IMG/VR virus record: IMGVR_UViG_3300044798_000210
Location: 1 to 26,192 of that record
Length of the DNA stretch: 26,192 nt
Reading direction: 5' to 3' (one strand)
From: a virus
In this document: in pieces, positions 1 through 25,616 of the stretch
Numbering within the stretch: position 1 is the stretch's first letter
Layout of the letters: each line of letters opens with the position of its first letter
Notes under the pieces: generated by a model
Databases searched by the model: none
What the model saw: the letters and a program-made list of their open reading frames with translations, nothing else
What the model was told of the DNA's origin: nothing
Position numbers and translations under genes: made by a program

Positions 1-1329
1 TTCGGCGTCAAGCCGGGGCCGTTCCAGACCAAACGATATATCGTCGCCAACTTCTGCGGATTGATCTCGAAGTTGTGCGCCGACCTCCTCTTCGGTGAAG
101 AGCCGGATTTCCTGAATCCGGACGAGGACGAGAAGGGGCAGGAGGCGCTGGATCGCCTGACCGGCGCTTCTTTCCACACCATGAACTACGAGTCGGAATT
201 GTCCAACTCGTTCCGCGGCGATGCGGTCTACAAGGTGCGGTGGGGCGAGCGCGTCCCGAAGTCCGGGAAATCCGAGGCGCTGATTGAGGAGATTTCGCCC
301 TCGCTTTACTTCCCCGAGGTGAACCCGGCCGACTTTCGCCAGGTGACGCGCGTCGCCTTGGCGTGGAAGGTCGCCGCGGACCGGCGGTTCTTTCTGCGCG
401 CCGAGGTGCACGAACCCGGGATCGTCCGGCAGGAGCTGTGGCAGTTGTCGCCGGGCGGAAAGATCGGTGCGCAGGTCCCGCTCAACACCGTCGAGGCTTT
501 CGCCGACCTAGTGGAAGAGGAGCCGACTAAGCTCGACCACATCCCGGTCTTCCACGTCCCGAATTTCCGCTATGGCAGCCGCTTCTGGGGCATGAGCGAT
601 TACGAGGGCATCGAATCGCTATTCGAGGCGGCCAACAACCGCCTGACGCAGATGGATCAGATTCTCGACAAGCACGCTGGGCCGAAACTCTCCATTCCCG
701 ACAGCATGGTCAACGAGGATGGCACGATCCGGCTGACCTCGCTCGAACTCATCCCGTTGAAGCCGGGCGAACAACCGCCGTCGTATCTGACCTGGGAAGG
801 TCAGCTCCTGGCGGCCGACCGGCAGGTAGACCGCCTGATCGAGTTGATGCTCATCCTATCGGAGACCTCTCCGGCGACGCTGGGACTCGACAAGTACGGC
901 GTTGCCGAGTCCGGACGCGCCCTGAAATTGCGACTCCTGCGGACACTGGCGAAGGTGAACAGGAAGCGGCTCTATTACGACGCCGCGCTCCGAGCCGCGT
1001 TGCTGACGGCGCAGCAGTTCGAGGCCGTCTTCGGCAAGACTGACTACGAACCGGCCGAGCCGACGATTCAGTGGGCCGACGGTCTGCCGGAGGATATGAT
1101 GGAGCAGGCGCAGATCGAGAACTTGCGCTTCGCCGCCGGCAACACCTCTGTCGAGTCTTCGATTCGCCGCCTGGACGGCCCGGATGCCGTCACGGCTGAA
1201 CTCGACCGGATCGCCACTGAGCAGGGTCAGGAGCGGACGCTGACGGGCGCCGGAGGTCCGGGCGAACGGCAGACCGAACCGGTGCCGCCGGTAACGCCCG
1301 AGCAGGTGGCCGCGGGTGCGGGGCGATGA
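1..1329 (+). CDS. Phage portal protein, SPP1 gp6-like (5' end outside window)
   Basis: The portal forms the dodecameric ring at the capsid vertex through which DNA is packaged and ejected. The frame is open from base 1, so the N-terminus lies upstream; 442 residues are visible to the TGA at 1327-1329. The C-terminal half has the long helical region typical of SPP1-type portals (LTQMDQILDKHAGPKLSIPD, then DRQVDRLIELMLILSETSPA and GRALKLRLLRTLAKVNRKRL), followed by a Pro/Glu-rich tail. It stands directly upstream of a minor capsid protein, scaffold and major capsid gene, the usual head order; a terminase gene is expected just left of the window. The family call rests on pattern recognition and order. 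The TTG at 61 is not needed as a start because the frame is open before it. Confidence 0.9.
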   Translation, partial: FGVKPGPFQTKRYIVANFCGLISKLCADLLFGEEPDFLNPDEDEKGQEALDRLTGASFHTMNYESELSNSFRGDAVYKVRWGERVPKSGKSEALIEEISPSLYFPEVNPADFRQVTRVALAWKVAADRRFFLRAEVHEPGIVRQELWQLSPGGKIGAQVPLNTVEAFADLVEEEPTKLDHIPVFHVPNFRYGSRFWGMSDYEGIESLFEAANNRLTQMDQILDKHAGPKLSIPDSMVNEDGTIRLTSLELIPLKPGEQPPSYLTWEGQLLAADRQVDRLIELMLILSETSPATLGLDKYGVAESGRALKLRLLRTLAKVNRKRLYYDAALRAALLTAQQFEAVFGKTDYEPAEPTIQWADGLPEDMMEQAQIENLRFAAGNTSVESSIRRLDGPDAVTAELDRIATEQGQERTLTGAGGPGERQTEPVPPVTPEQVAAGAGR

Positions 1330-1565
1330 GCCGGGTTTTTCACAGCAAAATTTTCGGGTGCGTGAACAAGCGGCGCCGTCGCCAGCTCGGCTTTGCCGGC
1401 CGTCGCCGGGAAGATGTGTGGCGGCTCATGGCCGAGCAGGAAGCGAAGCTGACGGCCGTGGCGAGGCTGGCCGCGTATCGGCGGCTCCCCTGGTGGCGGC
1501 GGCTGTGGGCGCGTCTGCGGGCACTGTGCGCGCGGATCTGGTCTCGACTGGTGCGGGAGAGATAG
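1326..1565 (+). CDS. Small Arg/Trp-rich hypothetical protein
   Basis: This 79-residue ORF starts with an ATG that overlaps the portal stop (ATGA), an arrangement that suggests translational coupling, and stops immediately before the GTG of the sigma-like gene. It is very basic (KRRRRQ near residue 16) and has an amphipathic, Trp-rich C-terminus (RLPWWRRLWARLRALCARIW). No family is recognised. It could bind nucleic acid or associate with membrane; both are inference. The tight packing between two real genes is the main support. An overlapping frame starting at 1316 is less convincing because it runs through the start of the next gene. Confidence 0.5.
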   Translation: MSRVFHSKIFGCVNKRRRRQLGFAGRRREDVWRLMAEQEAKLTAVARLAAYRRLPWWRRLWARLRALCARIWSRLVRER

Positions 1566-2183
1566 GTGACCGGCGAAATCCACTCCGGCAACGGAGCAAT
1601 GTCCCCTGTCGTGGCGGAGCAAATTCGGTATTTCATCAGCACCCTGAGACAGGACTGGGATACCTCCCGTGATCTCTACCAGGAGGCCGAAGTGGCTATC
1701 TGGGAGGCGGCCACCCAGCGGGCCACTGAGGACTGTCACGCCTACCTCATCAAGACTGGAATCGGCGCTATCCGTCATTGGCTCCGTGACCGGTCTCGTC
1801 TGATCCGGATTCCCGGCTACCTTCAGGAAAGCGGTCAGACCGCCACCTACGCCAAAACGATTGTCCCTCTGGATGATGTCAGCGAACATCTGGGGACCGA
1901 CTTCGAGCACGAGGACCTGGACCGCATCCGCCTGGACGACCAGCGCTCCATGGTCGAGCAGCTCCTCCCCCGGCTGACTCTCGCCGAGCGTAACGTGATG
2001 CAACTCCTCCTCCGCGGGCGCAGCATCCGCGAGATCGCCCGCCAGCGGCAAGTGGAAGAGGGGTGTATCTATGCCCAGCAATCCCGGGCCGTTCGTAAAC
2101 TTCGCCGTCTCCTGAAGGTGAGGGCGACATGGCCCGTCGCCGGATCGCTGCGGTCCGCCACCAGCCGCGGCCGGGAGAAGTAG
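1566..2183 (+). CDS. RNA polymerase sigma-70-like factor
   Basis: This 205-residue protein resembles small ECF-type or phage sigma factors. Residues about 18-80 form a helical region like sigma region 2 (DLYQEAEVAIWEAA...AYLIKTGIGAIRHWLRDRSR). After a linker, residues about 135-185 match a region 4 helix-turn-helix (LTLAERNVMQLLLRGRSI, then REIARQRQVEEGCIYAQQS and a basic RAVRKLRRLLK), which in this family contacts the -35 element. The GTG at 1566 is chosen because GGGAGA lies 6 bases upstream; the ATG at 1599 has a badly spaced site. It abuts the 79-aa ORF and is followed by the minor capsid gene after one base. Its place in the head operon suggests control of late transcription, possibly of the promoters seen at 3129 and 23579 (inference). 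The alternative is a sigma-like HTH regulator without core-binding activity. Confidence 0.75.
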   Translation: MTGEIHSGNGAMSPVVAEQIRYFISTLRQDWDTSRDLYQEAEVAIWEAATQRATEDCHAYLIKTGIGAIRHWLRDRSRLIRIPGYLQESGQTATYAKTIVPLDDVSEHLGTDFEHEDLDRIRLDDQRSMVEQLLPRLTLAERNVMQLLLRGRSIREIARQRQVEEGCIYAQQSRAVRKLRRLLKVRATWPVAGSLRSATSRGREK

Positions 2184-2184
2184 G

Positions 2185-3132
2185 ATGAAGGGCGCACTGA
2201 ACCCCGAACGCGTCAAGGCGTTCACCGATGCCTTCGACGGTCCGCTGGATTCGCTGGCGGCGCTCTACCGCAAGGCGGCGGCGGACGCGCTGCGAATCCT
2301 GACCGACGCGTCGTCCACGTTGGCGGCCCGGCAGCGCGCCAAGGCCTTGCTGCGCCAGTACCAAGTCATCCTCGCCAACCTGCGCGACGAGTCCGCCTTG
2401 TGGATCGAGACGAACCTGCCGAAGGCCTACGGCCTCGGACTGTCGTTCGCTGATGAGGGCGTAGCGAATATCCGACGCGCCGGCATCAACCTCGGCACGC
2501 CGCAACGGGCGGCTTTCGCCCAGGTGCACCGCGAGGCCGTGGCGGCGGCGGTCCAGGAGATGCTGCGGACCGCAGACTTTGCCCTCGCCCAGATTGGGCG
2601 CCGGGCTGGCGATACGTTCCGCAAGGTCGGCGTCGAGGAGGTGGCCAGGGGCGTGGCCGAGGGGCTGAGCCGCGTCGACGTGAGCCGGAACATCAAGGCC
2701 CGGCTACTGGCGGAGGGCAAGCACTACTTCACGGACCGGAGAGGCCGGAAGTGGGACCTCGACCGCTATACCGAGATGGTGGCGCGCACGACCACGCGGG
2801 AGGCGACGGTCCAGGGAAGCGTTAACCGGATGCTGGAGCACAATGTCCAGCTCGCTCGGATCGTACCCCACCCGGCCATAGATTTCTGCCTTCCGTTCCA
2901 GGGCAAGGTTTTCTACATCGGCCCGGAGCCGAACCCGACGCAGTATCCCGGTATCTCGGCCATGCCGGGAGGCAAGTTGCCGCCGTGGCACCCTCAGTGC
3001 AAGGATTCAATCGCTCCCTTCGTCCTGGCCCTCGCCACGAAAAAGGAAATGACGGCTGGCGAGATAGACCCGACCTGGCTCGGAAGGACGCCGGCGGAAC
3101 TGGAGCGGCAACTTCGGCGCAGTCGCCCTTGA
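2185..3132 (+). CDS. Phage minor capsid / head morphogenesis protein (min_cap2-like)
   Basis: This 315-residue protein follows the sigma-like gene by one base. The N-terminal ~150 residues are helical. The C-terminal half has the family hallmark YTEMVARTTTREA, then an HNVQLARIVPHPAIDFCLPF segment, QGKVFYI, and a final PPWHPQCKDSI. The Cys and His residues of the CLPF and WHPQCKDS motifs resemble the metal-binding C-terminal domain of phage minor capsid 2 / Mu gpF-type proteins. These are low-copy head proteins, usually near the portal, that may be ejected with DNA. Its place between portal and scaffold agrees. The stop at 3130-3132 overlaps the -35 box of the promoter at 3129. Confidence 0.85.
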   Translation: MKGALNPERVKAFTDAFDGPLDSLAALYRKAAADALRILTDASSTLAARQRAKALLRQYQVILANLRDESALWIETNLPKAYGLGLSFADEGVANIRRAGINLGTPQRAAFAQVHREAVAAAVQEMLRTADFALAQIGRRAGDTFRKVGVEEVARGVAEGLSRVDVSRNIKARLLAEGKHYFTDRRGRKWDLDRYTEMVARTTTREATVQGSVNRMLEHNVQLARIVPHPAIDFCLPFQGKVFYIGPEPNPTQYPGISAMPGGKLPPWHPQCKDSIAPFVLALATKKEMTAGEIDPTWLGRTPAELERQLRRSRP

Positions 3133-3156
3133 CAACCTAGCCGGCCGTGGTATGAT
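3129..3156 (+). promoter_or_regulatory. Sigma70-like promoter P1
   Basis: A perfect -35 TTGACA (3129-3134) is separated by 16 bases from TATGAT (3151-3156), five of six matches to the -10 consensus. Transcription would start near 3163, so the RNA begins at or just before the CRISPR-repeat-like sequence at 3166. The -35 overlaps the stop codon of the minor capsid gene. It probably drives the repeat-like RNA and, by readthrough, the genes from 3357 to the capsid gene. Confidence 0.75.
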
Positions 3157-3165
3157 GGACTTGTC

Positions 3166-3201
3166 GTCGCGTCCCTCATCCAGGGGGACGAGGATTGAAA
3201 C
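3166..3201 (+). CRISPR. Solitary CRISPR-repeat-like unit (36 nt)
   Basis: One 36-nt sequence looks like a type I/III CRISPR repeat. It begins GTCGCGTCCC, has a hairpin CGTCCCTC (3170-3177), loop ATCCA, GGGGGACG (3183-3190), and ends AGGATTGAAAC. The last eight bases, ATTGAAAC (3194-3201), match the common 5' crRNA handle left after Cas6 cleavage 3' of the hairpin. No second repeat, spacer array or cas gene is present in the window. A strong promoter sits directly upstream and an intrinsic terminator about 100 nt downstream. This is the layout of phage solitary repeat units that act as RNA anti-CRISPRs. The sequence match is seen directly; the function is inferred. Copies at 4761 and 9065 also have a hairpin before the TTGACAA motif but lack the ATTGAAAC tail, so convergence remains possible. 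Confidence 0.6.
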
Positions 3202-3305
3202 GTGACAACCGAATAGCCGCCCACCCACATCACGCAGATGAGGCGGGCTTGTCGGCAGAACCCTTGAACGGAAACGAGGGCTGTGCCCGACAAGCCCGCT
3301 TTTTT
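3202..3305 (+). ncRNA. Conserved leader element, copy 1
   Basis: This is the first of four related intergenic elements. GTGACAACCGAATAG (3202-3216) is followed by hairpin CATC-ACGCA-GATG (3228-3240). CCGCC (3217-3221) can pair with GGCGG (3242-3246) to enclose it. The same GCGGG bases also begin the terminator stem, so the two folds exclude each other. It lies just after the CRISPR-like repeat and upstream of the gene at 3357. Relatives are at 4772, 9082 and 23621. The role is unknown; attenuation or a 5' UTR function is inferred. Confidence 0.7.
3243..3305 (+). terminator. Intrinsic terminator in leader copy 1
   Basis: GCGGGCTTGTCGG (3243-3255) pairs perfectly with CCGACAAGCCCGC (3287-3299), 13 bp, followed by six T (3300-3305). 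An inner CCCT/AGGG stem extends it. It is strong and has no gene between it and the promoter at 3129, so it should define a short RNA of about 140 nt. A further 7-bp hairpin, GCCCGCC/GGCGGGC (3310-3337), follows and lies just before the ribosome binding site of the next gene. Confidence 0.85.
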
Positions 3306-3356
3306 GTTGGCCCGCCGTCGCCAAGGCTATGGCGGGCAGGCCCCGCGGAGGCAACA

Positions 3357-3629
3357 GTGCAGGCGACGATCGAGACGATAGCGGTTGAGCGCCAGACCGC
3401 CGAGGCGCTGGCGGAGGAGTGCGTCCGCTGCATGGAACTGCTCGACCAGCTCCAGCGGCGGTTCCAGTCGCTGGCGATGGCGGTCGCGAAGTTGGAAGTC
3501 GGACGTTCGCTGGATTCGGGTACGCAGGCCTGTTTCCATCGCGTATGCGAGGCGGCCGCCGCCGGCGCCCCCGAAGCGCTCAAGCAGTGGGCGGGATTCC
3601 GGGCGGGCCCGGGGCCGTCGAGCGACTGA
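3357..3629 (+). CDS. Hypothetical protein (90 aa, helical)
   Basis: The GTG at 3357 is chosen because GGAGG lies five bases upstream (3347-3351), after the terminator; the more upstream ATG at 3195 would start inside the leader RNA. The product is a mostly helical protein, with a likely coiled coil at residues 3-50 (VERQTAEALAEECVRCMELL, then DQLQRRFQSLAMAVAKLE). No family is recognised. It lies in the small-gene cluster between minor capsid and scaffold and is the first gene after leader copy 1. Confidence 0.6.
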   Translation: MQATIETIAVERQTAEALAEECVRCMELLDQLQRRFQSLAMAVAKLEVGRSLDSGTQACFHRVCEAAAAGAPEALKQWAGFRAGPGPSSD

Positions 3630-3639
3630 GGAGAGGACG

Positions 3640-3777
3640 ATGCCGACTCGCAAGGTGAAGGGTGGATACAAGTGGGGCGGCCACGGCAAAGTCTTCCCCA
3701 CCAAAGCGCAGGCCGACGCGCAGGGGCGAGCGGCCCACGCCGGCGGCCACAAGGGCGGCGGTAAAAAGGGGAAATAG
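3640..3777 (+). CDS. Small Gly/Lys-rich phage protein (45 aa)
   Basis: An ATG at 3640 is preceded by GAGGAGAGG. The 45-residue product is highly basic, MPTRKVKGGYKWGGHGKVF followed by PTKAQADAQGRAAHA and a GGHKGGGKKGK tail. Short proteins with the pattern GGYKWG..GK.(F/Y)PTKAQAEAQGRA are common near head genes of many phages, without assigned function. The charge suggests binding of DNA or RNA (inference). Confidence 0.7.
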   Translation: MPTRKVKGGYKWGGHGKVFPTKAQADAQGRAAHAGGHKGGGKKGK

Positions 3778-3780
3778 GTC

Positions 3781-3963
3781 ATGGCTGAGACGGGCAAGGA
3801 TGTCTACATCGTGCCGAAGGCGCAGTGCAACAACTGCGGGGCGACCTCGACCAGCCTGGTCATCCCGCGGGGCAAGCGCGTGAATGAAGCGATCTGTCCG
3901 GAGTGCGGGTGCAAGGATGTGCTCTACCGGATCAGCGAGGACGGTCCGGGGATGGTGGGATAG
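3781..3963 (+). CDS. Zinc-ribbon protein (60 aa)
   Basis: The product has two CxxC pairs, C16-N-N-C19 and C39-P-E-C42, about 20 residues apart, the spacing of a rubredoxin-like zinc ribbon, with basic IPRGKR between them. The ATG follows the previous stop by three bases and comes before a short hairpin (3964-3980). Such small ribbons are frequent in phage head operons. Metal binding is likely; the partner is unknown. Confidence 0.75.
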   Translation: MAETGKDVYIVPKAQCNNCGATSTSLVIPRGKRVNEAICPECGCKDVLYRISEDGPGMVG

Positions 3964-4015
3964 ACGGAGATCTTCTCCGTTTCCATAGACGCGGCCCGGC
4001 GCGGTGAAGCCGGGC
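3964..4015 (+). terminator. Two weak hairpins after the zinc-ribbon gene
   Basis: ACGGAGA (3964-3970) pairs with TCTCCGT (3974-3980) right after the stop codon, followed only by TT. A second stem, GCCCGGC (3994-4000) with GCCGGGC (4009-4015), follows. Neither has a proper T run, so termination would be weak. They may instead protect or space the mRNA ahead of the scaffold gene. Confidence 0.35.
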
Positions 4016-4051
4016 GAGACGCCGACGGGCGGTTAAAAACGGGAGGGAATC

Positions 4052-4759
4052 ATGGCGGAAGTGGCGGGACAGAATCAGCCCGGGCAAGCGGCTCCAGCGG
4101 GTGACAGCACGCCTCCCGCGGACGCAGGCCAGCCGGGGGGAGGTCCGACCGAGACGCCGGGGTTACAGGCGGAGGGCTTTCCTATCGTGCTGACGGACGA
4201 GCAGAAGGCGGCCATTGCGGCGGGTCGGCCGCTCGTGCTGAGCGATGACCAGTATACGAGCGGAGTCCGCTCGCAGATGGAATCCGAGCGCCGCGGCCGG
4301 CGCGTAGCCGAGAAGTCGTTGGCCGACATCGCCGTGCAGAAGGAAGCCGCTGATCGCGCGGCACTGGAGGAGCAGAAGCGGTATCAGGAACTGTACGAGA
4401 AGGAAAAGGCGGCGGGCGAGAAGGTCAACGCCGAACGCCGCTCCGAGCTGATTCGCTCGGACTTCCTCGTGCAGGCGATCCAGGCCGGCGTTGCCGACCC
4501 GAAGGTCGCCTACCTTGTCGCGCAGACCATGCCGGAGTTCTCCGGTGTCACGATCGGAGAAGACGGCGCGATCGTCGGCGTGGAGAAGGTCCTCAAGGCG
4601 CTCGTGGAGGCCAAGCCGTACCTTGTCACCACGACGCGACCGCCGAGTGTGGGAGCGGCGACGAATCCGGGACGGACCGACACGTCGGCCCCGGCTCCCA
4701 AGACGGTTCAGGAAGCGGGTGAGGCGCTGTCCGCGTGGGGTCGCTCCCAGGCCGGATAG
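4052..4759 (+). CDS. Capsid scaffold protein
   Basis: This 235-residue protein lies directly upstream of the major capsid gene, the standard place of a scaffold. The N-terminal ~45 residues are Pro/Gly/Ala-rich and probably disordered. Residues about 75-130 are a highly charged helix likely to form a coiled coil (GVRSQMESERRGRRVAEKSL, then AALEEQKRYQELYEKEKAAG). The next part (SDFLVQAIQAGVADPKVAYL) resembles phage scaffolds of the GP20/DUF4355 type. It would act inside the procapsid during assembly and then be lost. GGGAGGG precedes the ATG. Identity rests on composition and position. Confidence 0.8.
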   Translation: MAEVAGQNQPGQAAPAGDSTPPADAGQPGGGPTETPGLQAEGFPIVLTDEQKAAIAAGRPLVLSDDQYTSGVRSQMESERRGRRVAEKSLADIAVQKEAADRAALEEQKRYQELYEKEKAAGEKVNAERRSELIRSDFLVQAIQAGVADPKVAYLVAQTMPEFSGVTIGEDGAIVGVEKVLKALVEAKPYLVTTTRPPSVGAATNPGRTDTSAPAPKTVQEAGEALSAWGRSQAG

Positions 4760-4760
4760 C

Positions 4761-4859
4761 GGTTCGCCGCATTGACAACTGAATAGCACCCACCTACGTC
4801 ACGACGACGAGGCGGGCTCCCTCGGAATCGCAAGGGGATTCCGGGCGGGCCCGTTTTTT
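4761..4859 (+). ncRNA. Conserved leader element, copy 2 (before the capsid gene)
   Basis: A GCGG-TTCG-CCGC hairpin (about 4759-4770) precedes TTGACAACTGAATAG (4772-4786). Hairpin CGTC-ACGAC-GACG (4797-4809) follows. CCCACCT (4789-4795) can pair with AGGCGGG (4810-4816) with one mismatch, excluding the terminator. Relative to copies 1 and 4, the stem pair A-T is G-C here, a compensatory change. No -35/-10 pair is seen upstream, so it is probably entered by readthrough from the scaffold gene. Confidence 0.7.
4813..4859 (+). terminator. Intrinsic terminator in leader copy 2
   Basis: CGGGC (4813-4817) pairs with GCCCG (4849-4853), with an inner GGAATC/GATTCC stem (4824-4829, 4837-4842), followed by six T (4854-4859). 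It lies between scaffold and major capsid genes, so capsid expression needs partial readthrough, antitermination or RNA processing. Confidence 0.75.
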
Positions 4860-4891
4860 GTTGGCCGTGACGAGAGAACGAGGAGAACATC

Positions 4892-5875
4892 ATGGCGCTG
4901 ACGCCTACCGACCTGGCTGAACAGGTCATCAAGTTGTACGGCCCGGCGTTCGTCGAGACGATCAAGCGGGAGTGCTTCCTGCTGACTCGACTCGAAGAGC
5001 GCGGGCTGATTCGCGACGGCAAACCCGTCATCGTTTGGCAGGCGAACTATGCCGGCAACACGTCGGTTGGTTCGTACGGCCCGGGCGACGCCGCGGGTGG
5101 GGCTGGTAAACAGTCCTTCAAGCCGGCGGCTCTCGATTACAAGTCCGTGCGCGGCGAGGTGGCGATCGCGGGTCAGACCGTGGCCATCAGCGAAGCGGGC
5201 GGATATTTCGTGGATACGGTGCGCACCGAACTTGACCTCGTAGTCAAAGACCTACGCAAGGACATCAACGGTCAGCTCCTCTCGGATGGCACCGGGAATT
5301 CGGCCAAGGACATCACCGGCATCCTCGCTGCGATCAGTGACGCCGGTACTTACGCCGGGATTGCCCGCGGCACCTATACCTGGTGGAAGTCCGCTGTGGA
5401 CGAGAACGGCGGCGACCCGCGCAATCTGACCGAGGCCCTGATCGCGGGTGTTGTGGATGAGGTGACCGACCGCGGAGCCGACCCGATGTCGCTCGAACTC
5501 TGGTGCGGCCCGACCCAGTGGCGGAAGTTCGGCGCACTCTATAAGGGCGAGCGGCGGCAGACTCCCATCTCGTTGACGGGCGGCTACCAGAAGCTCGATT
5601 TCGAAGGCACTCCCGTCATCAAGGTGCCCGGCTACGCGTCCGGGCGCATGGACGCGGTCGACGTGAGTAAGTTCACTTACGAAATGCTCCCGGTGACTGC
5701 GAATTCCGAGTTGGCGCGCTCGCTCCGCAATGTCGTGGCCGTGCCGGGAATTCCGGGCTTTGGGATTCTACTGCTCGGCAACACCGCGGACATCGCCGGC
5801 TTCTGGGTGATCCACTACGGCCAACTGAAATGCTCGAACCCCTATGTCCAGGGCAGCATTCAGGACCTGGCATAG
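4892..5875 (+). CDS. Major capsid protein (HK97 fold)
   Basis: This 327-residue protein has the length and position of an HK97-fold major capsid protein. Recognisable segments are an N-terminal helix (LAEQVIKLYGPAFVETIKR), the E-loop-like stretch (SVGSYGPGDAAGGAGKQSF), the spine and domain region (ELDLVVKDLRKDINGQLLSD) and a late GTPVIKVPGYASGRMDAV segment typical of the family. It builds the icosahedral shell. GAGGAG precedes the ATG. It is the first gene after leader copy 2, probably the most expressed gene of the module. Confidence 0.9.
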   Translation: MALTPTDLAEQVIKLYGPAFVETIKRECFLLTRLEERGLIRDGKPVIVWQANYAGNTSVGSYGPGDAAGGAGKQSFKPAALDYKSVRGEVAIAGQTVAISEAGGYFVDTVRTELDLVVKDLRKDINGQLLSDGTGNSAKDITGILAAISDAGTYAGIARGTYTWWKSAVDENGGDPRNLTEALIAGVVDEVTDRGADPMSLELWCGPTQWRKFGALYKGERRQTPISLTGGYQKLDFEGTPVIKVPGYASGRMDAVDVSKFTYEMLPVTANSELARSLRNVVAVPGIPGFGILLLGNTADIAGFWVIHYGQLKCSNPYVQGSIQDLA

Positions 5876-5888
5876 GAAGGGGGGCAAT

Positions 5889-6452
5889 ATGCCGATTGAC
5901 AACGACAAGAAGGCATTGCTCAACCAGGCCATATGCCCGAACCTTGGGGCGGTGGAACTCGGCACGGTCATCCAGGACCTGCAGGTCGGGATCGTCACCG
6001 CGCATGTCGACGACGTGACCCTTGAGGTCAACATCTCGGACGAGGTGCAGATCAAGGATGAGGGAGTCGACACCGCGCAGCTCGCAGACGGGGCGGTGAC
6101 GAGTGCCAAGTTCGCGGAGGACGTGCCGCCGGGTGTCCTGGCGGGGATCGCCGAGTATCTCACCGCAACACCCGGCATCGCGAATGCGTTGGTGGCGGCG
6201 GCGGGCACCTACCTGGATGAGAATCCGGGAGTGGCGGCGGCGCTGGTGACGGCCATGGGCGACTATCTGGTTGCCAATCCTGAGGCCGTGGCGACGATGG
6301 CGGAAGCCCTCGTGCACGCGCTCGCGGCGAGCGGAAACCTGCACGTCAAGGGGACGGATTACGTCCCCGCGAATCCGGTCGTGGACATCTCGTTCGGGTA
6401 TGACGGCACGGTGTACCATGCCTTCCTCTACTCGGCGAATGGAGACGAGTAG
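5889..6452 (+). CDS. Head-fibre/decoration-like structural protein
   Basis: The ATG at 5889 is preceded by a run of G residues (5878-5884) and follows the capsid stop; the ATG at 5844 lies inside the capsid gene. The 187-residue product has the motif VDTAQLADGAVTSAKFAED (residues 60-78), widespread in phage head-fibre and tail-fibre stalks. It also has three 18-residue tandem repeats starting YLTATPGIANALV, YLDENPGVAAALV and YLVANPEAVATMA (residues 90, 108, 126). The location after the capsid gene favours a capsid fibre or decoration protein. This is inference from motif and order. Confidence 0.6.
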   Translation: MPIDNDKKALLNQAICPNLGAVELGTVIQDLQVGIVTAHVDDVTLEVNISDEVQIKDEGVDTAQLADGAVTSAKFAEDVPPGVLAGIAEYLTATPGIANALVAAAGTYLDENPGVAAALVTAMGDYLVANPEAVATMAEALVHALAASGNLHVKGTDYVPANPVVDISFGYDGTVYHAFLYSANGDE

Positions 6453-6490
6453 CTGACGGCGCTAGGCGCCTGATGCCATAGACTGACCCT

Positions 6491-6517
6491 GGGGGCCGGG
6501 CGATGGTTCCGGCCCCC
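6491..6517 (+). terminator. Strong hairpin without T run
   Basis: GGGGGCCGG (6491-6499) pairs perfectly with CCGGCCCCC (6509-6517) around a nine-base loop, just before the next ribosome binding site. The lack of a T run argues against efficient intrinsic termination. It could slow polymerase or ribosomes, or stabilise the abundant upstream capsid mRNA. Confidence 0.4.
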
Positions 6518-6534
6518 CAACGACAGGAGACGAG

Positions 6535-6861
6535 ATGGACTCCGATCACGACGTATCCGAGGAAGCGAAGGCGAGCGCGCCGGTCGAGGAAAGCGATGCT
6601 CCGCCGACGCCAGCGAAACTCCGGGTGACACTGGCGGCCCGCCTGGCTCTGGCAGAGCCGCAGCGGACCGAGGCGCTGGAGAAAGCCGTCCAGGAAGGCG
6701 AGGGATTCTTTCTCCGATCCCGCGACGGCAAGGAGATCAAGCGGCGCTTCGGCCGCGCGATCCTGAAGTTGGGCGACAAGCCCAAGGCCGTCTCGGCCGA
6801 GCACGCCATTCAGTTGCTCTTCTACCTGGGCGACCGGGTGGAGGAGGTCGAGGAGGAGTAG
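6535..6861 (+). CDS. Hypothetical acidic protein (108 aa)
   Basis: An ATG at 6535 follows CAGGAGACGAG. The N-terminus is acidic and disordered; residues about 28-100 look folded and helical (KLRVTLAARLALAEPQRTEA, EGFFLRSRDGKEIKRRFGRA, HAIQLLFYLGDRVEEVEEE). No family is recognised. Its place between capsid and connector genes suggests a head or neck function. It ends one base before the next GTG. Confidence 0.7.
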   Translation: MDSDHDVSEEAKASAPVEESDAPPTPAKLRVTLAARLALAEPQRTEALEKAVQEGEGFFLRSRDGKEIKRRFGRAILKLGDKPKAVSAEHAIQLLFYLGDRVEEVEEE

Positions 6862-6862
6862 C

Positions 6863-7426
6863 GTGGCGGACAGCCTGATCAAGGCGACGCTGGGGGCGGA
6901 TGACGCCAACTCCTATGTCGACGGGACCTATGCGGCCGCGTATTTCGCGACCCGGTTGGGGGCGGAGACGTGGACGGCGGCGGCGACCGTCGACCAGGAA
7001 AGGGCGCTGATCACGGCGTGTCGGAACATCGAGGTCGGCCGCGTGGCGATCAACCGCTACATCGCGGACTACGACCCGCTGGCGCCCTATCAGATCGATC
7101 AGGCCCTCTCATTTCCTCGGCAGAAAGACCGGGACGCTTCCGGCGCCTACATCATTCCGGAGCCGATCAAGCAGGCGCAGTGCGAGGAGGCGCTCGCTCT
7201 CCTGTCGTTCTTGACCGAGCATCAGCGGCGCCGGCGCTTGCAGGCGGCCGGTGTCACGTCCTTTTCCGTGGACGGACTGTCGGAGACCTATGGGAAGCCG
7301 GAGGGGGCTTCCAGCCCGCTACTGAGTCTCGAAGCGCGGCAACTAGTCGCGCCCTACTTGCGGCGGGGCGGAGTGATCGCCACCTCGGACTTGCCAGCGG
7401 GCGAGTTCACGCCGGGGAGCGGATGA
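6863..7426 (+). CDS. Head-tail connector / adaptor (DnaT-like family)
   Basis: This 187-residue protein has the pattern of phage proteins often labelled putative DnaT-like ssDNA-binding: NSYVDGTYAAAYFATRLGAE, then WTAAATVDQERALITACRNI, ALSFPRQKDRD, and IPEPIKQAQCEEALALL. In phages these sit after the capsid gene and are thought to be head completion adaptors bound under the portal; the DnaT name is misleading. The GTG start at 6863 follows the previous stop by one base, with GAGGAGGAG just upstream. The last three bases overlap the next start (ATGA). Confidence 0.75.
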   Translation: MADSLIKATLGADDANSYVDGTYAAAYFATRLGAETWTAAATVDQERALITACRNIEVGRVAINRYIADYDPLAPYQIDQALSFPRQKDRDASGAYIIPEPIKQAQCEEALALLSFLTEHQRRRRLQAAGVTSFSVDGLSETYGKPEGASSPLLSLEARQLVAPYLRRGGVIATSDLPAGEFTPGSG

Positions 7427-7611
7427 TGCCAACTGTTTCCGCGAACATGACGGCCCACGTGCCGCGGCGGACGCGGCTGGCGTTGCGCGCCGTCACCCTA
7501 CTGCTGCGGTGGCGCCTCCTCCGCCCCGCGTTGGCGGTTCGCCTGGCCGATGCCGTGATCAAGCGGACCATCTTCCGCATAGTTCCCGACGGCCGGATCG
7601 TGCGTAGATGA
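7423..7611 (+). CDS. Small Arg-rich hypothetical protein (62 aa)
   Basis: The ATG at 7423 overlaps the preceding stop (ATGA) and the stop at 7609-7611 overlaps the next start in the same way. A second in-frame ATG follows directly. The product is basic with a hydrophobic-Arg helix (LALRAVTLLLRWRLLRPALA). No family is recognised. It fills the gap between two connector genes and is comparable in size, charge and ATGA coupling to the 79-aa ORF at 1326. Confidence 0.55.
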   Translation: MMPTVSANMTAHVPRRTRLALRAVTLLLRWRLLRPALAVRLADAVIKRTIFRIVPDGRIVRR

Positions 7612-7913
7612 TCTCCGATTACCTCGCCCAGGGGATCTGGCGGAAGACGCGGACCGGGGTTGACGGATACGGTCAGCCCGCCTTCGCCGCGGTTGTGCAG
7701 ACGACGGGGCGGTGGCTGGAGAAGCGCCGACTCGTTCGGAACCTGGAGGGCGAGCAAGTGATCTCGGAAGTGACTGTGACTCTCGGCCCGGACGAAAGTG
7801 TCGCCGTGGGCGACCGACTTTCCGCGGACGGGACCGCGTATCACGAGGTGATCGCGGTGTCGGTGGCACGGGGACTCGGCGGCGCGGCCGAACTGAAGCG
7901 GGCCTACCTGTGA
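7608..7913 (+). CDS. Head-tail joining / head closure protein
   Basis: This 101-residue protein resembles small beta-rich head closure (stopper) proteins: a conserved GRWLEKRRLVRNLEGEQVIS segment followed by strand-rich EVTVTLGPDESVAVGDRLS and AYHEVIAVSVARG. These form the neck ring that closes the filled head and receives the tail. Its position between the adaptor and tail completion genes fits. The start overlaps the upstream stop (ATGA). The family call is by pattern and order only. Confidence 0.65.
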   Translation: MISDYLAQGIWRKTRTGVDGYGQPAFAAVVQTTGRWLEKRRLVRNLEGEQVISEVTVTLGPDESVAVGDRLSADGTAYHEVIAVSVARGLGGAAELKRAYL

Positions 7914-7920
7914 GGACGGC

Positions 7921-8082
7921 ATGAAATGGAATAAGGCGGCAGTCAAAGCGGTTTACCAGGCGGGCTACGTCGCCGCCGGTCTGGCAGTGCTGACCCTGGC
8001 CAACCGCTCGCAATGGTGGGCGGTGATGATCGTCGGGGCCGCGACGGCCTTCGTCAACTGGTACAAGCACCGGGGGGATTGA
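7921..8082 (+). CDS. Small two-helix membrane protein (53 aa)
   Basis: A 53-codon ORF starts MKWNKAAVKAVYQAGYVAAG. It has two hydrophobic segments, about residues 14-26 (AGYVAAGLAVLTL) and 31-47 (WWAVMIVGAATAFVNWY), and a charged C-terminus KHRGD. GAGGA (7912-7916) lies five bases before the ATG, and the next gene starts three bases after the stop. It is probably a real membrane protein. Holin-like or superinfection-exclusion roles are possible, but its place among neck genes, away from the endolysin, leaves the role open. Confidence 0.65.
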   Translation: MKWNKAAVKAVYQAGYVAAGLAVLTLANRSQWWAVMIVGAATAFVNWYKHRGD

Positions 8083-8085
8083 GCG

Positions 8086-8664
8086 ATGGCCGACATCGGC
8101 AAGATCATCTCGGGAATGCCCGGCAGTCGGAGCGGCGCGCTGACCATCGAGTTCAGCGGGATCGCCGAGCTGACGCGCGCCCTCTCTCGAAACGGTGAGG
8201 TGTGGAAGCGCATCCAGCAGGCCGCCGTGGACGGCATGATCGAGAACAGCGAGCACCTGCTCGGCAAGGCGATGGAAGAGGCCCCGATAGACGAGGGGAC
8301 GCTCCGCGCCAGCGGCACGGCGACGGTCTACGCCAATGGCCGTGCTGTCTCCCGTCAGGGCATTCGGTCGTTCGTTGAGGAGACCGGGAAAACCATCGCC
8401 AAATCGAAACTCCACGAGACGGCCATGGCTGACACCGAAATCGGCCAGGAGACTCTCGATCCGAGAACCTTGATCGAGGGTGGCGCGGGCGATGCCATTG
8501 TCGGCGAGGTCGGGTTCAACACGCCCTACGCTTTGGCGCAACACGAACGCCTGGACTTCCACCACCCACAGGGTGGCAAGGCGAAATACCTGGAGGACCC
8601 ACTCAAGGAGAACTCCGGCCGTTACCAGGAAAACCTGGAGCGGCACCTGCGAGAGACACTGTGA
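8086..8664 (+). CDS. Tail completion protein, HK97 gp10-like
   Basis: This 192-residue protein has the family pattern APIDEGTLRASGTATVYANG in the middle and VGFNTPYALAQHERLDFHHP, then GGKAKYLEDPLKENSGRY, near the C-terminus. HK97 gp10-type proteins take part in head-tail joining and tail completion. The central part (AMADTEIGQETLDPRTLIEG) is an insertion relative to shorter members. The next gene starts on an overlapping GTG (GTGA). Confidence 0.8.
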   Translation: MADIGKIISGMPGSRSGALTIEFSGIAELTRALSRNGEVWKRIQQAAVDGMIENSEHLLGKAMEEAPIDEGTLRASGTATVYANGRAVSRQGIRSFVEETGKTIAKSKLHETAMADTEIGQETLDPRTLIEGGAGDAIVGEVGFNTPYALAQHERLDFHHPQGGKAKYLEDPLKENSGRYQENLERHLRETL

Positions 8665-9062
8665 GCCTGCTGATAGACCAAATGGCGACGTGGCTACAGA
8701 CCCAGGGCGAGGGCACGGTCGGGACCACGATCTTCAAGATCAACCGGCCGCCGACTCCCGTCGCCTGCGTCAGTTTGCACGCCACTGGCGGCTATCCGCC
8801 CGATAACTATACAGCGATCGAGCGGCCGACTCTCATGTTCTTCGCCCGGGCCGCTACACCAAGCGCGGCGCTGCAGAAGGCCTACTCGCTCTGGCGCCGG
8901 CTGCATAGGCGGTCGAACCTCAACCTGGGCGGCAACCTCTGGGCACTGAGCATCCTGGCGATCGCCAGCCCGGCTTATGTCGGCACGGAACAGGCGGCCG
9001 ACCAGACCGCGCACCTGGTGAGCTTCAACATCGCGCTACAACTGCGCGAACCGAGTTCATAG
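8661..9062 (+). CDS. Tail terminator-like protein
   Basis: The GTG at 8661 overlaps the previous stop. The 133-residue product begins with a helix (LLIDQMATWLQTQGEGTVGT), then strands including RPTLMFFARAATPSAALQKA and LWALSILAIASPAYVGTEQA, ending in HLVSFNIALQLRE. Length, fold pattern and place between gp10-like and tail tube genes match tail terminator (gpU-like / minor capsid) proteins, which cap the tail tube. There is no unmistakable motif. Confidence 0.7.
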   Translation: MSLLIDQMATWLQTQGEGTVGTTIFKINRPPTPVACVSLHATGGYPPDNYTAIERPTLMFFARAATPSAALQKAYSLWRRLHRRSNLNLGGNLWALSILAIASPAYVGTEQAADQTAHLVSFNIALQLREPSS

Positions 9063-9064
9063 CG

Positions 9065-9176
9065 CGTCCGCCTCGCGGACGTTGACAATCGAATAGCAAC
9101 CGCCCACGTCGCGCAGACGAGGCGGGCTCTTCCAGCGGAGGGGTGGCTCTCACCGCTGGGGGCGCCCGCCTTTTTT
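9065..9176 (+). ncRNA. Conserved leader element, copy 3 (before the tail tube gene)
   Basis: A perfect hairpin CGTCCGC-CTC-GCGGACG (9065-9081) is followed by TTGACAATCGAATAG (9082-9096) and hairpin CGTC-GCGCA-GACG (9107-9119). CCGCC (9100-9104) can pair with GGCGG (9121-9125), the same bases that open the terminator stem. The upstream hairpin resembles that of the CRISPR-like repeat in copy 1 (CGTCCC...GGGACG) but lacks the AGGATTGAAAC tail. No promoter is visible upstream. Confidence 0.7.
9121..9176 (+). terminator. Intrinsic terminator in leader copy 3
   Basis: GGCGGGC (9121-9127) pairs with GCCCGCC (9164-9170), enclosing CCAGCGG/CCGCTGG (9132-9138, 9153-9159), followed by six T (9171-9176). 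It separates the neck genes from the tail tube gene. Confidence 0.8.
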
Positions 9177-9207
9177 GTTGAGCGTGGAGCACCGAGGAGG
9201 AACGAAC

Positions 9208-10035
9208 ATGGCTGCTGCAACGATTACGGATGTGCGTCCAGGGGTCGGAAAACTGAGTGACACCGACCTCATCACGATCATCGGGACGAACTTCGCCGAC
9301 TCGCCGAGCCTGACGAAGGTCTACAAGCGCAAGCACGGCGCCACCAGTTGGGAGGCGGTGACCGCCGGTAACATCGCCTGGGTCTCGGCAACGGAAATCG
9401 CCGTCACCCTGAAGGTCGGCGACGCGTGGGACGGCGGCATGAACGACATCGGCGTGTCGGTCAGCACGGAGTCCGCTCCCGAGGACAGCATGGAGCAGGC
9501 GCTGTGCTTCTACACCGCCGGCGCCGATGCCAGCGCCAACATCATAGTCGGTCCGCCCGACGGGGTCTACATCTCCGGCCTCTATATGGGCGACCTGGCC
9601 GCGGCCTCCGAGTTTGCCTGGGAGGAAGAGATCAAGAAGATCTACACCCAGCACTCGCGCCTGCCGGTCAAGACCTACAAGGGCGATTCGACCTACACCC
9701 TCAGCGTCCCGCTGGCCGAGTGGTCGCTTGAGAACATCAAGGTCGTCATGGGCAGCGCGGCCAGCATCACCGCGGAGGGCGCAGGGCGTCGGCGCCTGAC
9801 CTTCGGTGGCGGGACCAGTCTCGTCGTCTACGACGACGTGCTGCTGATCCTGCCGGGTCCGGACGGGAAGAAGGTCGCCCTCGTCCTCTATCGCTGTTCG
9901 ATCAGCGCGAGCGGATCGATCAGTTGGGCCAAGGACGAGAACGCCAAGCTCCCCCTGAAGATTCAGGTGCTGGCCGACACGTCCCGCGCCGTCGACGACC
10001 AGGTCGGCTACTGGGAAGAGTGGACGGTCGCTTAG
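9208..10035 (+). CDS. Major tail tube protein with N-terminal Ig/TIG-like domain
   Basis: The ATG at 9208 is chosen for the GAGGAGGAAC site upstream; a TTG at 9175 would start in the terminator tail. Of 275 residues, about 1-95 look like an IPT/TIG Ig-like domain (TITDVRPGVGKLSDTDLITI, IGTNFADSP, ISVSTES-like end). Residues about 110-275 look like a tail tube (EFAWEEEIKKIYTQHSRLPV, KTYKGDSTYTLSVPLAEWSL). Position after the terminator protein and before the tail chaperones supports the tube call. Ig domains on tail tubes usually decorate the surface and bind host glycans weakly. An N-terminal position is less common than a C-terminal one. Confidence 0.75.
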   Translation: MAAATITDVRPGVGKLSDTDLITIIGTNFADSPSLTKVYKRKHGATSWEAVTAGNIAWVSATEIAVTLKVGDAWDGGMNDIGVSVSTESAPEDSMEQALCFYTAGADASANIIVGPPDGVYISGLYMGDLAAASEFAWEEEIKKIYTQHSRLPVKTYKGDSTYTLSVPLAEWSLENIKVVMGSAASITAEGAGRRRLTFGGGTSLVVYDDVLLILPGPDGKKVALVLYRCSISASGSISWAKDENAKLPLKIQVLADTSRAVDDQVGYWEEWTVA

Positions 10036-10643: not shown

Positions 10644-10975
10644 CGGTCCTGGCGAGCGCGTTCGACATCCTGCAGTCGGAATACGGGTGGACCAGATGCT
10701 ATATCTGGCAGCACTGTACGCCGGCCGAGACGTTGGTCTGGGCGGACCGCATCGAGCGGCGCCAGGCGCTTCGGTTGGCCCAGGAAACCGAACTGAACTT
10801 CATAGCGGCGGCCTCGGCCCAGGGCGGCAAGCAATCGTTCAACGCCTTGCAATCCGTGTTGCGCAACCTGCGCGACGAACCCGACAAACCCATCGATGCT
10901 GCGAAGGTGGCGCGCCAGTTAGGGTTGCGGCGGCGCTCGCGAAAGGGGCCGCCTGATGGCGCTGACAGTCGGTAG
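10134..10975 (+). CDS. Tail assembly chaperone G-T fusion (via -1 frameshift)
   Basis: A -1 shift at 10568-10574 lets ribosomes leave the G frame after codon AAC (10572-10574) and continue at 10574 in the second frame, which is open from well before the site to the TAG at 10973-10975. The predicted fusion is 280 residues; T-specific sequence includes VAVLASAFDILQSEYGWTRC, TPAETLVWADRIERRQALRL and KQSFNALQSVLRNL. In lambda and most siphoviruses the long form is made at a few per cent and is essential. The internal ATG-free start of T agrees with expression by frameshift only. T overlaps the tape measure start by 20 bases. Confidence 0.8.
10568..10574 (+). other. Programmed -1 slippery heptamer A_AAA_AAC
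   Basis: In the G frame the sequence reads CGA AAA AAC, so bases 10568-10574 form A AAA AAC, a canonical X_XXY_YYZ slippery site. Both tRNAs can re-pair on AAA AAA one base back. A small GAG-CGCG-CTC stem (10578-10587) follows immediately. The overlapping T frame is open on both sides. Confidence 0.85.
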
Positions 10976-13900
10976 CATCGTCGCGCGGATGCAACTCGAC
11001 CTGACCGGCTTCCGGGAAGGCCTCCAGCGCGCCAACTCCCTGCTCGAGCAGTACGGTGGGACGGCGATGCGGTCGGCCATGATGCTCGGCGGGATGAGCG
11101 CGGCCATCGGCGGCTTGGCAGGGGAGGCGGTCAAACAGGCCGGCGAAATGGAATCCTCCCTCACTCAGTTCAACATGGTCGCGAAGCTTACTCCCGAGGC
11201 ACTGGCGAAAGTCACCGAGGAGATCCATGCCTTCGCCCGTGAAGCCGGAGTCGCCGACGAAGTACTCCTCGGATTGCTGACCCGCGTTCACGAGCACGGG
11301 TTCGCCGGCGCGGAAGCCATGGGCGTGCTCGAATCGGCGACGCGGGCGGCGGTGGCCCGCAAGGCCGACGTGGCGGCCTTCGGCGAGTCGCTGGTATCGG
11401 TCATGCGGGCCTATAACTTGGGCGCCAGCGAGGCCGCCAAGGTCACTGATTCCCTCTACCAGGCGAGCGTCATCGGCGCCGGCAGCCTTAACGAGGTGGG
11501 CGGGGCCATGCAGGGCCTGGCTCCGTTGGCGTCGGCCCTGCACATCGGCTATAACGAGGTGCTCGCCGCCCTCGCTACTACCCACACGGTCGGACTCCCA
11601 GCCGAGCAGGTCTACCTCGGGCTGAGTACCGCCATGATGAAGCTCACCAATCCGACCAAGGAACTCAAACGGGCGCTGCAAGATGCCGGTTACGAGTCCG
11701 GGCAGGCCCTGATCCAGGCGCAGGGATTCGCTGGAGCGATCAAGTTCCTGACGGACACCGCTGGCGACGATGAAGCGATGATGATGCAGATGGGTGGCGG
11801 CGTCCGGTCCTTCCGGATTCTGGCTGCCCTGGCCAGCAACGACTCGGCTCTGTTCGCCCAGAAACTCCAGGAGATGGCCGGCGCCGCCGGCGCGGCTGGC
11901 AAGGGGTTCGAGGAATCCGCGAGGACCTGGGAAGTCCGGTGGGCGTCGTTCAAGGTGCAGCTCGCCCAGACCTTCGAGGCCTTCGGGGAGAAGGTCCTGC
12001 CGGTACTCAAGACCTTCGCCGTCGTGCTGGCGGCCTTGCTGCTGCCGCTTCAAATGATGCCGGGACCATTGCGCGTCATCGTCGTGACGGCCGGACTCCT
12101 GTTCGCCGGCCTGGCCTCATTGACGGCGGGCTTCGTCATGTGGCGCATGGGGATGGCCGGCGCCGGAATGGCCTCCTACGGCCTCATGGGCGCCATGGCG
12201 CAGATGGTGGTCGGACTGGGGACGACCGTCCGGACCTGGTTGGCCTCGGTCGCCGCCTTCGTGACCGGAGCCAGAGCTGTCGCCGCCAGCGCCGTCGTAC
12301 TGACAGACGAAATGGCCCTCGCTGGCGCCGGAGTCGGAGCCGCCGGGGCCGCGGCGGGAGCGGGAGTGGCCGCTGTCGGAGGGCCCGTCGGCTGGATTAT
12401 CGCCGCGGTCATCATCATTCCGGCGCTCATCGCGGGACTGGTGTCCTGGCGGGACGCCCAGGCGGCGGCGAATGCCGAGGCGGCGAAGAGCGCCCAACTT
12501 ACTGCGGAGCAGGTAACCGAGGTCCGGGGCCTCATCGACCACCTGCGGGAACTGAACCAGCAGGAGGCCGACGCCCAGGCGAAGGGCCTGAAGCCCGGCG
12601 CCGACCTGCTGAAGGACCAACTCGACACGCGGAACAAGATCGCCGCGCTCTTCCCACAGATCATCGCGGGCTGGGACGCGGAGGGAAACGCTATCCTCGC
12701 CGTGGCGGACGCGACGAAGGCGCTCACGGAAGCACAGAAGGCCAACCTGACCGTGATGCGGGCCAGTGCCGTCGTCGCCCTGGATGCGGCGAAGGTGGCC
12801 GCCAAGGCCGCCGCGGACAAACTAAAGGCCGACGAGAATGCCTTCAACCAGATACAGGCGAGATACAAGGCGGCTCCGGGCGGCAAGGGCGAACAACGTT
12901 CGTGGTTGGATATACCCGGCCCCTTGGGGGCGATGCTTGGGGCCTATGAGCCGGCCGATTTCCCGGCATTGAAAGGCGCGGCTGATGCGGTCATCGTGCA
13001 GGCAAAGGCCGTAGCAGATGCCAACGCGGCTGTCAGATCCACGACGGCCCAGTTGAAGGTCATCGACGACGCCATGGGCGGTGCGGCAAAAAGAGACGCG
13101 GAGGCCATCGCGACCGCAACGGCGGCGCGCCAGACGCTCCAACAGAAGCGCCTCGCCGAGATCGACGCCGAGGAAGCCGCCCTGCGGAAGGCGGGCGTGT
13201 TCGCAGCGACGGCGGCGCAGTTCGCCGAGGCCCAGCGGGTTGCCGCCAAGAAGTCTGCCAATCCGAAGATGCTGGCGCTGGAGACCGACCTGCTGGAGGC
13301 CGAGGGCAAGGTCACCGAGGCGCGGTTGCTGCGGATCGCCGTCGAGCGAGACGCGGAGATCGCCAAACTCGTCGAGATACAGGAGGCCGAAAAGGCGGGG
13401 GCGAGCAAGAGCGACGAGGCCAAGGCCGCGCAGCAGGCCGTCGGACAGCGGGCCGTGCTGGCCGGGATGCGCACTTGGTGGAAGGAGCGCCGCGACCTGA
13501 CCCTCGAATCGGAGCGCGACCTCGCCGATGCGATCATGGGCATGGCCGAGCATACCCTGGAACAGGAAGCCTATGTCCGACAGGTGCGGTTGCGCGAGAT
13601 CAAGGCCGAGGGCGTGAAGATTCACGATGAGTGGATTGCCCGCGGCGCGAAACAGGCGGACGCGGTCGCGGCCGCGAACATCAAGGTCGCCGCACTGACG
13701 CAGACGATGGACAAGGAGTTGGCGGACGCCCGCCGGCGCCTGTTCGAGACCACCGCGGACTTCATCGTGGGCACCTGGGGCAACCTGACGACCCAGTTGG
13801 GCGAGATCGAGACCATGGCGCTGACCCAGCAGGCGGAGCGGCGCGGCAGGGCTCGCCGGGCCGAAGCCGGCGTCGCCCTGGAGCGGGCGCGGCCCACCCT

Positions 13901-23578: not shown

Positions 23579-23607
23579 TTGACAGTTCGGGGTGGCGGCA
23601 GTACGAT
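23579..23607 (+). promoter_or_regulatory. Sigma70-like promoter P2
   Basis: TTGACA (23579-23584), a 17-base spacer and TACGAT (23602-23607) make a good promoter. The start point would be near 23614, only a few bases upstream of leader copy 4, so that RNA would begin almost with the conserved core. It would serve the structural, holin and endolysin genes that follow. Confidence 0.65.
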
Positions 23608-23620
23608 AGATAGGTAGCGG

Positions 23621-23713
23621 TTGACAATCGAATAGTTCCCGCTTACATCACGCAGATGCGGCGGGTTCTGCTTGCGGCAGCCGGGCGGCGGCCTCGAGCG
23701 GGACCCGCCTTTT
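23621..23713 (+). ncRNA. Conserved leader element, copy 4
   Basis: TTGACAATCGAATAG (23621-23635) is followed by CATC-ACGCA-GATG (23646-23658). CCCGC (23638-23642) can pair with GCGGG (23661-23665), bases also used by the terminator. The inner hairpin equals copy 1, while the enclosing stem is CCCGC/GCGGG instead of CCGCC/GGCGG. It has its own promoter immediately upstream. A further GGCCC-GAC-GGGCC hairpin (23719-23731) lies just before the next ribosome site. Confidence 0.7.
23660..23713 (+). terminator. Intrinsic terminator in leader copy 4
   Basis: GGCGGGT (23660-23666) pairs with ACCCGCC (23703-23709), enclosing CTGC/GCAG (23668-23671, 23677-23680), followed by TTTTCTTTT. The closing T-A pair replaces the C-G of copy 3, a compensatory change. 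The interrupted T run may make it leakier than the others. Confidence 0.75.
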
Positions 23714-23742
23714 CTTTTGGCCCGACGGGCCGAGGAGGCGAC

Positions 23743-25538: not shown

Positions 25539-25616
25539 AGTGTATCCTGTCTGTGGCCGCAAGTCAAGGGACGTTTCGAGATCGCCATTACGGATCTGGG
25601 GCAGTAGGAGGGCGAT

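What the first reader, a model, noticed from the sequence alone, without database searches (positions are those of the whole stretch)
3129..3305. Solitary CRISPR-repeat unit in a phage structural operon: candidate RNA anti-CRISPR
Seen: promoter TTGACA-16-TATGAT (3129-3156); a single 36-nt CRISPR-type repeat (3166-3201) beginning about 3 nt after the predicted start point; an 8-bp hairpin; the ATTGAAAC handle; no second repeat; a strong terminator ending at 3305. Known: phages can carry solitary repeat units expressed as small RNAs (Racrs) that imitate crRNA repeats and bind Cas6 or the effector in non-productive complexes. Inference: this locus makes a ~140-nt RNA of that kind against a type I or III system of the host. 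New aspects would be its position between head genes and its fusion to a leader element found four times in this phage.
Basis: partly seen in the sequence, partly recalled or inferred. Interest (0 to 1): 0.88.

Follow-up and report, generated by a model that had tools for sequence, protein, structure and literature searches.

The report
Lone CRISPR-repeat mimic in phage genome
A phage genome carries one isolated copy of a CRISPR-type repeat right behind a strong promoter, most likely producing a small decoy RNA that ties up the host's CRISPR machinery, as known RNA anti-CRISPRs do.

Summary
In detail: a strong promoter (3129-3156, 11 of 12 consensus bases), one 36-nt unit GTCGCGTCCCTCATCCAGGGGGACGAGGATTGAAAC (3166-3201), no second copy at up to 3 mismatches, and a terminator ending at 3305. 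The unit has the architecture of published CRISPR repeats: GTNG, an 8-bp stem, a short loop, then the 11-nt tail AGGATTGAAAC. It matches Geobacter metallireducens CRISPR3 and Thermus type I-C repeats at the conserved ends, with compensatory changes inside the stem. In 1.26 Mb of phage DNA no other hairpin of this shape scored above 8 of 11 on the tail, except one in another phage (L021) that was fetched by that tail. The tail length fits type I-C (Cas5d leaves an 11-nt handle). No genome in an 84,980-species collection held the patterned repeat, so host and cognate repeat are unknown. The 'leader found four times' is a separate phage module (boxA-like motif, covarying hairpin, intrinsic terminator) placed before major structural genes; the repeat sits between promoter and leader. 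Most likely a Racr-type decoy RNA; function untested, with a boxB-like hairpin as the main rival. New member of a known kind.

The parts
3129..3156 (+). sigma-70-type promoter TTGACA-16-TATGAT with extended -10 TG
   Evidence: 11/12, best in 1-10000; shuffles mean 0.9 sites of any quality
3166..3201 (+). solitary 36-nt CRISPR-type repeat (GTCG + 8-bp stem-loop 3170-3190 + 11-nt tail AGGATTGAAAC 3191-3201)
   Evidence: repeat comparison
3203..3216 (+). boxA-like motif TGACAACCGAATAG (copy 1 of 4)
3228..3240 (+). small hairpin CATC-ACGCA-GATG with a compensatory A-U/G-C change among the four copies
3242..3305 (+). long intrinsic terminator (GGCGGGCTTGTCGG ... CCCGACAAGCCCGCTTTTTT)
3357..3629 (+). 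90-aa ORF downstream (GTG start, GGAGG upstream), no family match; possible accessory gene
   Evidence: identical in L002
4772..4859 (+). leader copy 2 (boxA-like + hairpin + terminator) before the major capsid gene, no repeat
   Evidence: capsid gene
9082..9176 (+). leader copy 3 before the major tail protein gene, no repeat
   Evidence: tail protein
23579..23714 (+). promoter (TTGACA-17-TACGAT, 23579-23607) and leader copy 4, no repeat; 13 nt between -10 and motif

Best explanation
3166-3201 is a captured CRISPR repeat kept as a solitary unit behind its own promoter, and its RNA acts as a decoy for the host's crRNA-processing protein (an RNA anti-CRISPR, Racr). Shown: promoter, single repeat with CRISPR-repeat architecture, terminator, no cas1 match on the window record. 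Inferred: transcription starts near 3163 and ends near 3305; the stem-loop is bound by the host repeat endonuclease, most likely Cas5d of a type I-C system (cleavage at the 3' base of the stem would leave exactly the 11-nt handle AGGATTGAAAC), possibly Cas6; the bound stem-loop, and the handle joined to a non-targeting structured tail, then occupy Cas proteins unproductively.
For: Unit is single and intergenic, a few nt after a strong promoter. Published repeats share GTNG-stem-AGGATTGAAAC: G. metallireducens CRISPR3, Thermus I-C; B. coprophilus GTCG...TGGATTGAAAC. Relative to the first two, stem pairs 2, 3, 5 and 6 show both-sided changes that stay paired. Tail match 11/11 against at most 8/11 for 1,780 other phage hairpins. 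A scan for GTCGC-N-CGAGGATTGAAAC found seven distinct loci; only this one and L021 form the full stem. An 11-nt handle is the Cas5d product (PMC5965380); a type I-C Racr is known (PMC10651486). No cas1 in the window. Copies 2-4 of the leader lack the repeat.
Against: No matching repeat in 84,980 genomes under two patterns, nor in plasmids or phages by blastn. Host unknown. The only relative with the unit is near-identical here, so conservation is untested. RacrIF1 inhibits mainly through RNA upstream of the cleavage site, and here only about 3-7 nt lie upstream of the repeat. L021 has no scored promoter.
Confidence: 0.6

Rival explanations
1. The hairpin is a boxB-like stem-loop before a boxA-like antitermination site, and the CRISPR-type tail is a coincidence. 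The whole 3163-3305 RNA is an attenuator leader for the downstream gene, like the three other leader copies.
For: The four leaders share a boxA-like motif and terminator. CTTTGACAAYYGAATAG is very common in phages, usually as GYTCTTTGACAAYYGAATAG, sometimes near tRNA genes. Copies 2 and 3 also have a GC hairpin just upstream. rrn leaders are ordered boxB-boxA-boxC (PMC10250234).
Against: In copies 2 and 3 the hairpin directly abuts the motif; copy 1 has an 11-nt linker that matches a CRISPR tail 11/11, which chance hairpins do not approach. Only 1 of 127 boxA-like sites has TTGAAAC within 60 nt upstream, and there it lies before the promoter. Copy 4 has no hairpin.
Confidence: 0.2
2. The unit is an inert relic of a CRISPR array or of a recombination with one.
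For: Only one near-identical relative is known, so selection cannot be shown.
Against: Intact stem and tail, and position directly behind a near-consensus promoter.
Confidence: 0.1
3. The unit is a one-repeat guide: host Cas proteins process it and the following RNA targets competing phages that share the leader sequence.
For: Processing would give the handle followed by GTGACAACCGAATAG..., a sequence family shared among leaders.
Against: No second repeat; the would-be spacer is the phage's own repeated leader (three more partial matches in its own genome) and would be structured.
Confidence: 0.05

Closest known systems
RacrIF1 and other Racr candidates (solitary repeat units; PMC10651486)
   Same: Single CRISPR-type repeat in a phage intergenic region, directly downstream of a promoter, small RNA predicted
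   Different: RacrIF1 carries inhibitory RNA upstream of the processing site; here almost none lies upstream, and the tail is a boxA-like leader plus terminator. No repeat with the required identity has been found.
RacrIC1 (type I-C, with acrIC5 in a Bifidobacterium prophage; PMC10651486)
   Same: Type I-C-like repeat; processing protein expected to be Cas5
   Different: RacrIC1 lies 11 nt downstream of an acr gene on a bicistronic RNA; here the repeat is first on its RNA, and the downstream 90-aa ORF has no known relative.
Geobacter metallireducens CRISPR3 repeat (PMC2700814)
   Same: Same ends (GT.GCG and CGAGGATTGAAAC), 8-bp stem, 11-nt tail; 30 of 39 aligned columns identical
   Different: 37 nt, different stem sequence (compensated), found in an array of thirteen
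rrn/phage boxA-boxB antitermination sites
   Same: Leader has a TTGACAAYYGAATAG motif like the 3' part of GYTCTTTGACAAYYGAATAG
   Different: The 5' boxA core GYTCT is absent in all four window copies, and each motif is followed by an intrinsic terminator

Membership tests
Racr / solitary repeat unit | Single repeat with no further full or partial copy nearby | tested here: met
   one copy, one GGATTGAAAC in 26 kb
Racr / solitary repeat unit | Lies outside predicted genes | tested here: met
   between the minor head gene (ends 3132) and the ORF starting at 3357; a longer TTG-start ORF from 3195 in that frame is judged unlikely but is open
Racr / solitary repeat unit | Promoter within 250 bp upstream | tested here: met
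   3129-3156, ends 9 nt before the repeat
Racr / solitary repeat unit | At least 90% identity to a known CRISPR repeat (SRUFinder criterion) | tested here: inconclusive
   The 17,823-repeat library is not available here. Patterned genome scans found none; best published repeat in hand is identical in 30 of 39 aligned columns.
Racr / solitary repeat unit | Repeat-like secondary structure | tested here: met
   8-bp stem, 5-nt loop, z -2.6
Racr / solitary repeat unit | Expressed as a small RNA | not testable with these tools
   needs RNA data from infected cells
Racr / solitary repeat unit | Inhibits a CRISPR-Cas system | not testable with these tools
   needs binding and phage-protection assays
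Type I-C repeat mimic | 11 nt between stem base and repeat end | tested here: met
   Cas5d 11-nt handle from PMC5965380
Type I-C repeat mimic | Host carries a type I-C system with a matching repeat | not testable with these tools
boxA antitermination site (leader element) | Complete boxA core GYTCTTTGACAA | tested here: not met
   the four copies start at (G/T)TGACAA, without GYTCT; so boxA-like, not filed as boxA

The most novel reading that the evidence does not exclude
The repeat is a sensor, not just a decoy: when the host's CRISPR endonuclease binds or cuts the repeat at the head of the leader, it changes readthrough at the boxA-like element and terminator, so that an accessory gene (the 90-aa ORF at 3357, possibly an anti-CRISPR protein) is switched by the presence of CRISPR-Cas.
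Probability: 0.07. Interest if true: 0.88.

Novelty: new member of a known kind. Interest (0 to 1): 0.5.

Why it matters
It would extend RNA anti-CRISPRs to a phage lineage without close isolates, with a repeat that differs in the stem from the published repeats compared here but keeps their shape and tail, so identity-based searches could miss it. A structure-plus-tail search could find more. It also places a decoy repeat in front of a boxA-like leader, making it testable whether Cas binding affects transcription of the downstream gene.

Tried and rejected
Rfam found nothing in the window. Patterned repeat scans in 84,980 genomes found nothing; the second pattern fixed CCTC within the stem, which compensatory change would break, so it was a poor choice. 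Blastn of the 36-mer gave only partial chance hits. Relatives by minor head protein: only the near-identical contig; by capsid: none. The first leader pattern had a wrong register. L007 is probably a chance match to the leader pattern; in L009 the motif doubles as a plausible promoter (TTGACA-17-TAGTAT) opposite small hydrophobic ORFs, so neither was counted as support. Five other GTCGC...CGAGGATTGAAAC loci lack the proper stem and were set aside as chance. Mini-array reading rejected: no second repeat. Relatives of a virus record cannot be drawn, so no mismatch-tolerant search of host genomes was possible.

Full report
What is there. The window is part of a phage structural operon: portal (1-1329), a sigma-70-like protein (1566-2183), a minor head protein (2185-3132), small ORFs, scaffold (4052-4759), major capsid (4892-5875), major tail protein (about 9211-10035) and a tape-measure-sized protein (10956-14879). 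Its portal is about 33% identical to those of Paenibacillus, Sporosarcina and Brevibacillus phages and its capsid gives only weak matches, so the host is not told. Directly at the end of the minor head gene stands TTGACA-16-TATGAT at 3129-3156, with an extended -10, the best promoter match in the first 10 kb. It is followed at 3166-3201 by GTCGCGTCCCTCATCCAGGGGGACGAGGATTGAAAC, then a leader module, then a long terminator ending in TTTTTT at 3305. The 36-mer occurs once at up to three mismatches, and GGATTGAAAC occurs once.

Is it a CRISPR repeat? It folds as GTCG, an 8-bp stem CGTCCCTC/GGGGGACG with a 5-nt loop, and the tail AGGATTGAAAC. Published repeats with the same plan are Geobacter metallireducens CRISPR3 GTAGCGCCCGCCTACATAGGCGGGCGAGGATTGAAAC (PMC2700814), Thermus I-C GTTGCACCGGCCCGAAAGGGCCGGTGAGGATTGAAAC (PMC6452258 and PMC10989782), and, with a T before GGATTGAAAC, Bacteroides coprophilus (PMC3374615). 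Across window, Geobacter and Thermus I-C, stem pairs 2, 3, 5 and 6 change on both sides and stay paired, while the unpaired ends are kept. As a control, 137 loci (1.26 Mb, most fetched for other reasons) held 1,782 hairpins with a GT start and a 7-9 bp stem. The tail match peaks at 3 of 11, reaches 8 once, and then jumps to 11 for this unit and for L021. L021 was fetched by its tail, so only the window unit is an independent observation; and the window itself came to me because a reader had picked it out, so this is a strong but not a blind test.

A scan of 2.9 million viral contigs for GTCGC-N16-21-CGAGGATTGAAAC gave 13 stretches, seven distinct loci. Five have no proper stem and look like chance hits. 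The other two are this locus (with its near-identical copy in L002) and L021, a 70-kb phage with GTCGCCAAGCAGGTAACCACTTGGCGAGGATTGAAAC, also solitary, lying between a divergent gene that looks like terminase and portal-side genes (by eye). L021 has no scored promoter.

The leader module. The sequence after the repeat is the first of four copies (3203, 4772, 9082, 23621). Each has TTGACAAYYGAATAG (TGACAA in copy 1), a small hairpin whose CATC/GATG pairs change to CGTC/GACG together, and a terminator whose stem has both-sided changes. They precede the ORF at 3357, the major capsid gene, the major tail gene and the ORF near 23746. The motif resembles the 3' part of GYTCTTTGACAAYYGAATAG. This resembles the rrn boxA, which binds NusB (PMC10250234). 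The window copies lack the GYTCT core, so I call them boxA-like only. That these modules act as attenuators or antitermination sites for highly expressed genes is inference.

How the two fit. Copy 4 also follows a promoter, with 13 nt between -10 and motif. In copy 1 the distance is 46 nt; removing the 36-nt unit leaves 10 nt. The repeat therefore looks like a piece inserted between promoter and leader (inference from one comparison). In L002 the portal, sigma-like and minor head genes, the repeat and the 90-aa ORF are 99-100% identical, but part of the stretch between that ORF and the scaffold differs, so this junction exchanges small genes. Anti-CRISPR genes sit in an accessory region in Mu-like Pseudomonas phages (PMC4378225); from my own knowledge this region is next to the head protease/scaffold gene. 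So a head-gene position has precedent.

Mechanism. Most likely the RNA (about 3163-3305) is bound through its stem-loop by the host repeat endonuclease. The 11-nt tail equals the 5' handle left by Cas5d in type I-C (PMC5965380), so Cas5d is the first candidate; Cas6 with an 8-nt ATTGAAAC handle is the alternative. One mechanistic difference from RacrIF1 must be noted: RacrIF1 works mainly through RNA upstream of the cut (PMC10651486), but here only a few nt lie upstream of the repeat, so sequestration by the stem-loop itself or by the handle-plus-tail is more likely. All of this is inference.

Limits. The host is unknown. Two patterned scans of 84,980 genomes found nothing, but the patterns fixed parts of the stem and tail and could miss a compensated or lightly mutated repeat. 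Relatives are few, so conservation could not be tested.

Noticed in passing
window 1566-2183: A sigma-70-like protein (phrog_351, E 2.4e-10) encoded between portal and minor head genes; it may drive the promoters at 3129 and 23579.
   Followed up: partly
window 3203, 4772, 9082, 23621: Four copies of a boxA-like motif + covarying hairpin + intrinsic terminator before major structural genes; a candidate attenuation or antitermination system of this phage.
   Followed up: partly
viral contigs, for example L004 6613-6640 and loci L022-L140: GYTCTTTGACAAYYGAATAG is a very common leader motif in phage contigs, some of it next to tRNA genes; it looks like rrn-type boxA used by phages.
   Followed up: partly
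L008, minus strand, about 2474-2564: A different phage contig with the same order: promoter TTGACA-TAGAAT, TTTGACAACTGAATAG, terminator, gene start.
   Followed up: no
L021 429-465: Second solitary repeat-like unit of the same tail class in a different 70-kb phage, with a partial repeat of GATTGAAAC right after it.
   Followed up: partly
L009 3690-4400, also L034, L037, L038, L114: Tandem promoter-terminator units opposite small hydrophobic ORFs with strong ribosome sites; look like type I toxin-antitoxin pairs.
   Followed up: no
window 25056-25685, minus strand: HNH-endonuclease-like ORF (weak HNH match) on the opposite strand near the end of the window; possible homing endonuclease.
   Followed up: no
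L004 77-317: Group I intron (Rfam RF00028, 56.5 bits) near a cluster of 18 tRNA genes in a 74-kb phage.
   Followed up: no
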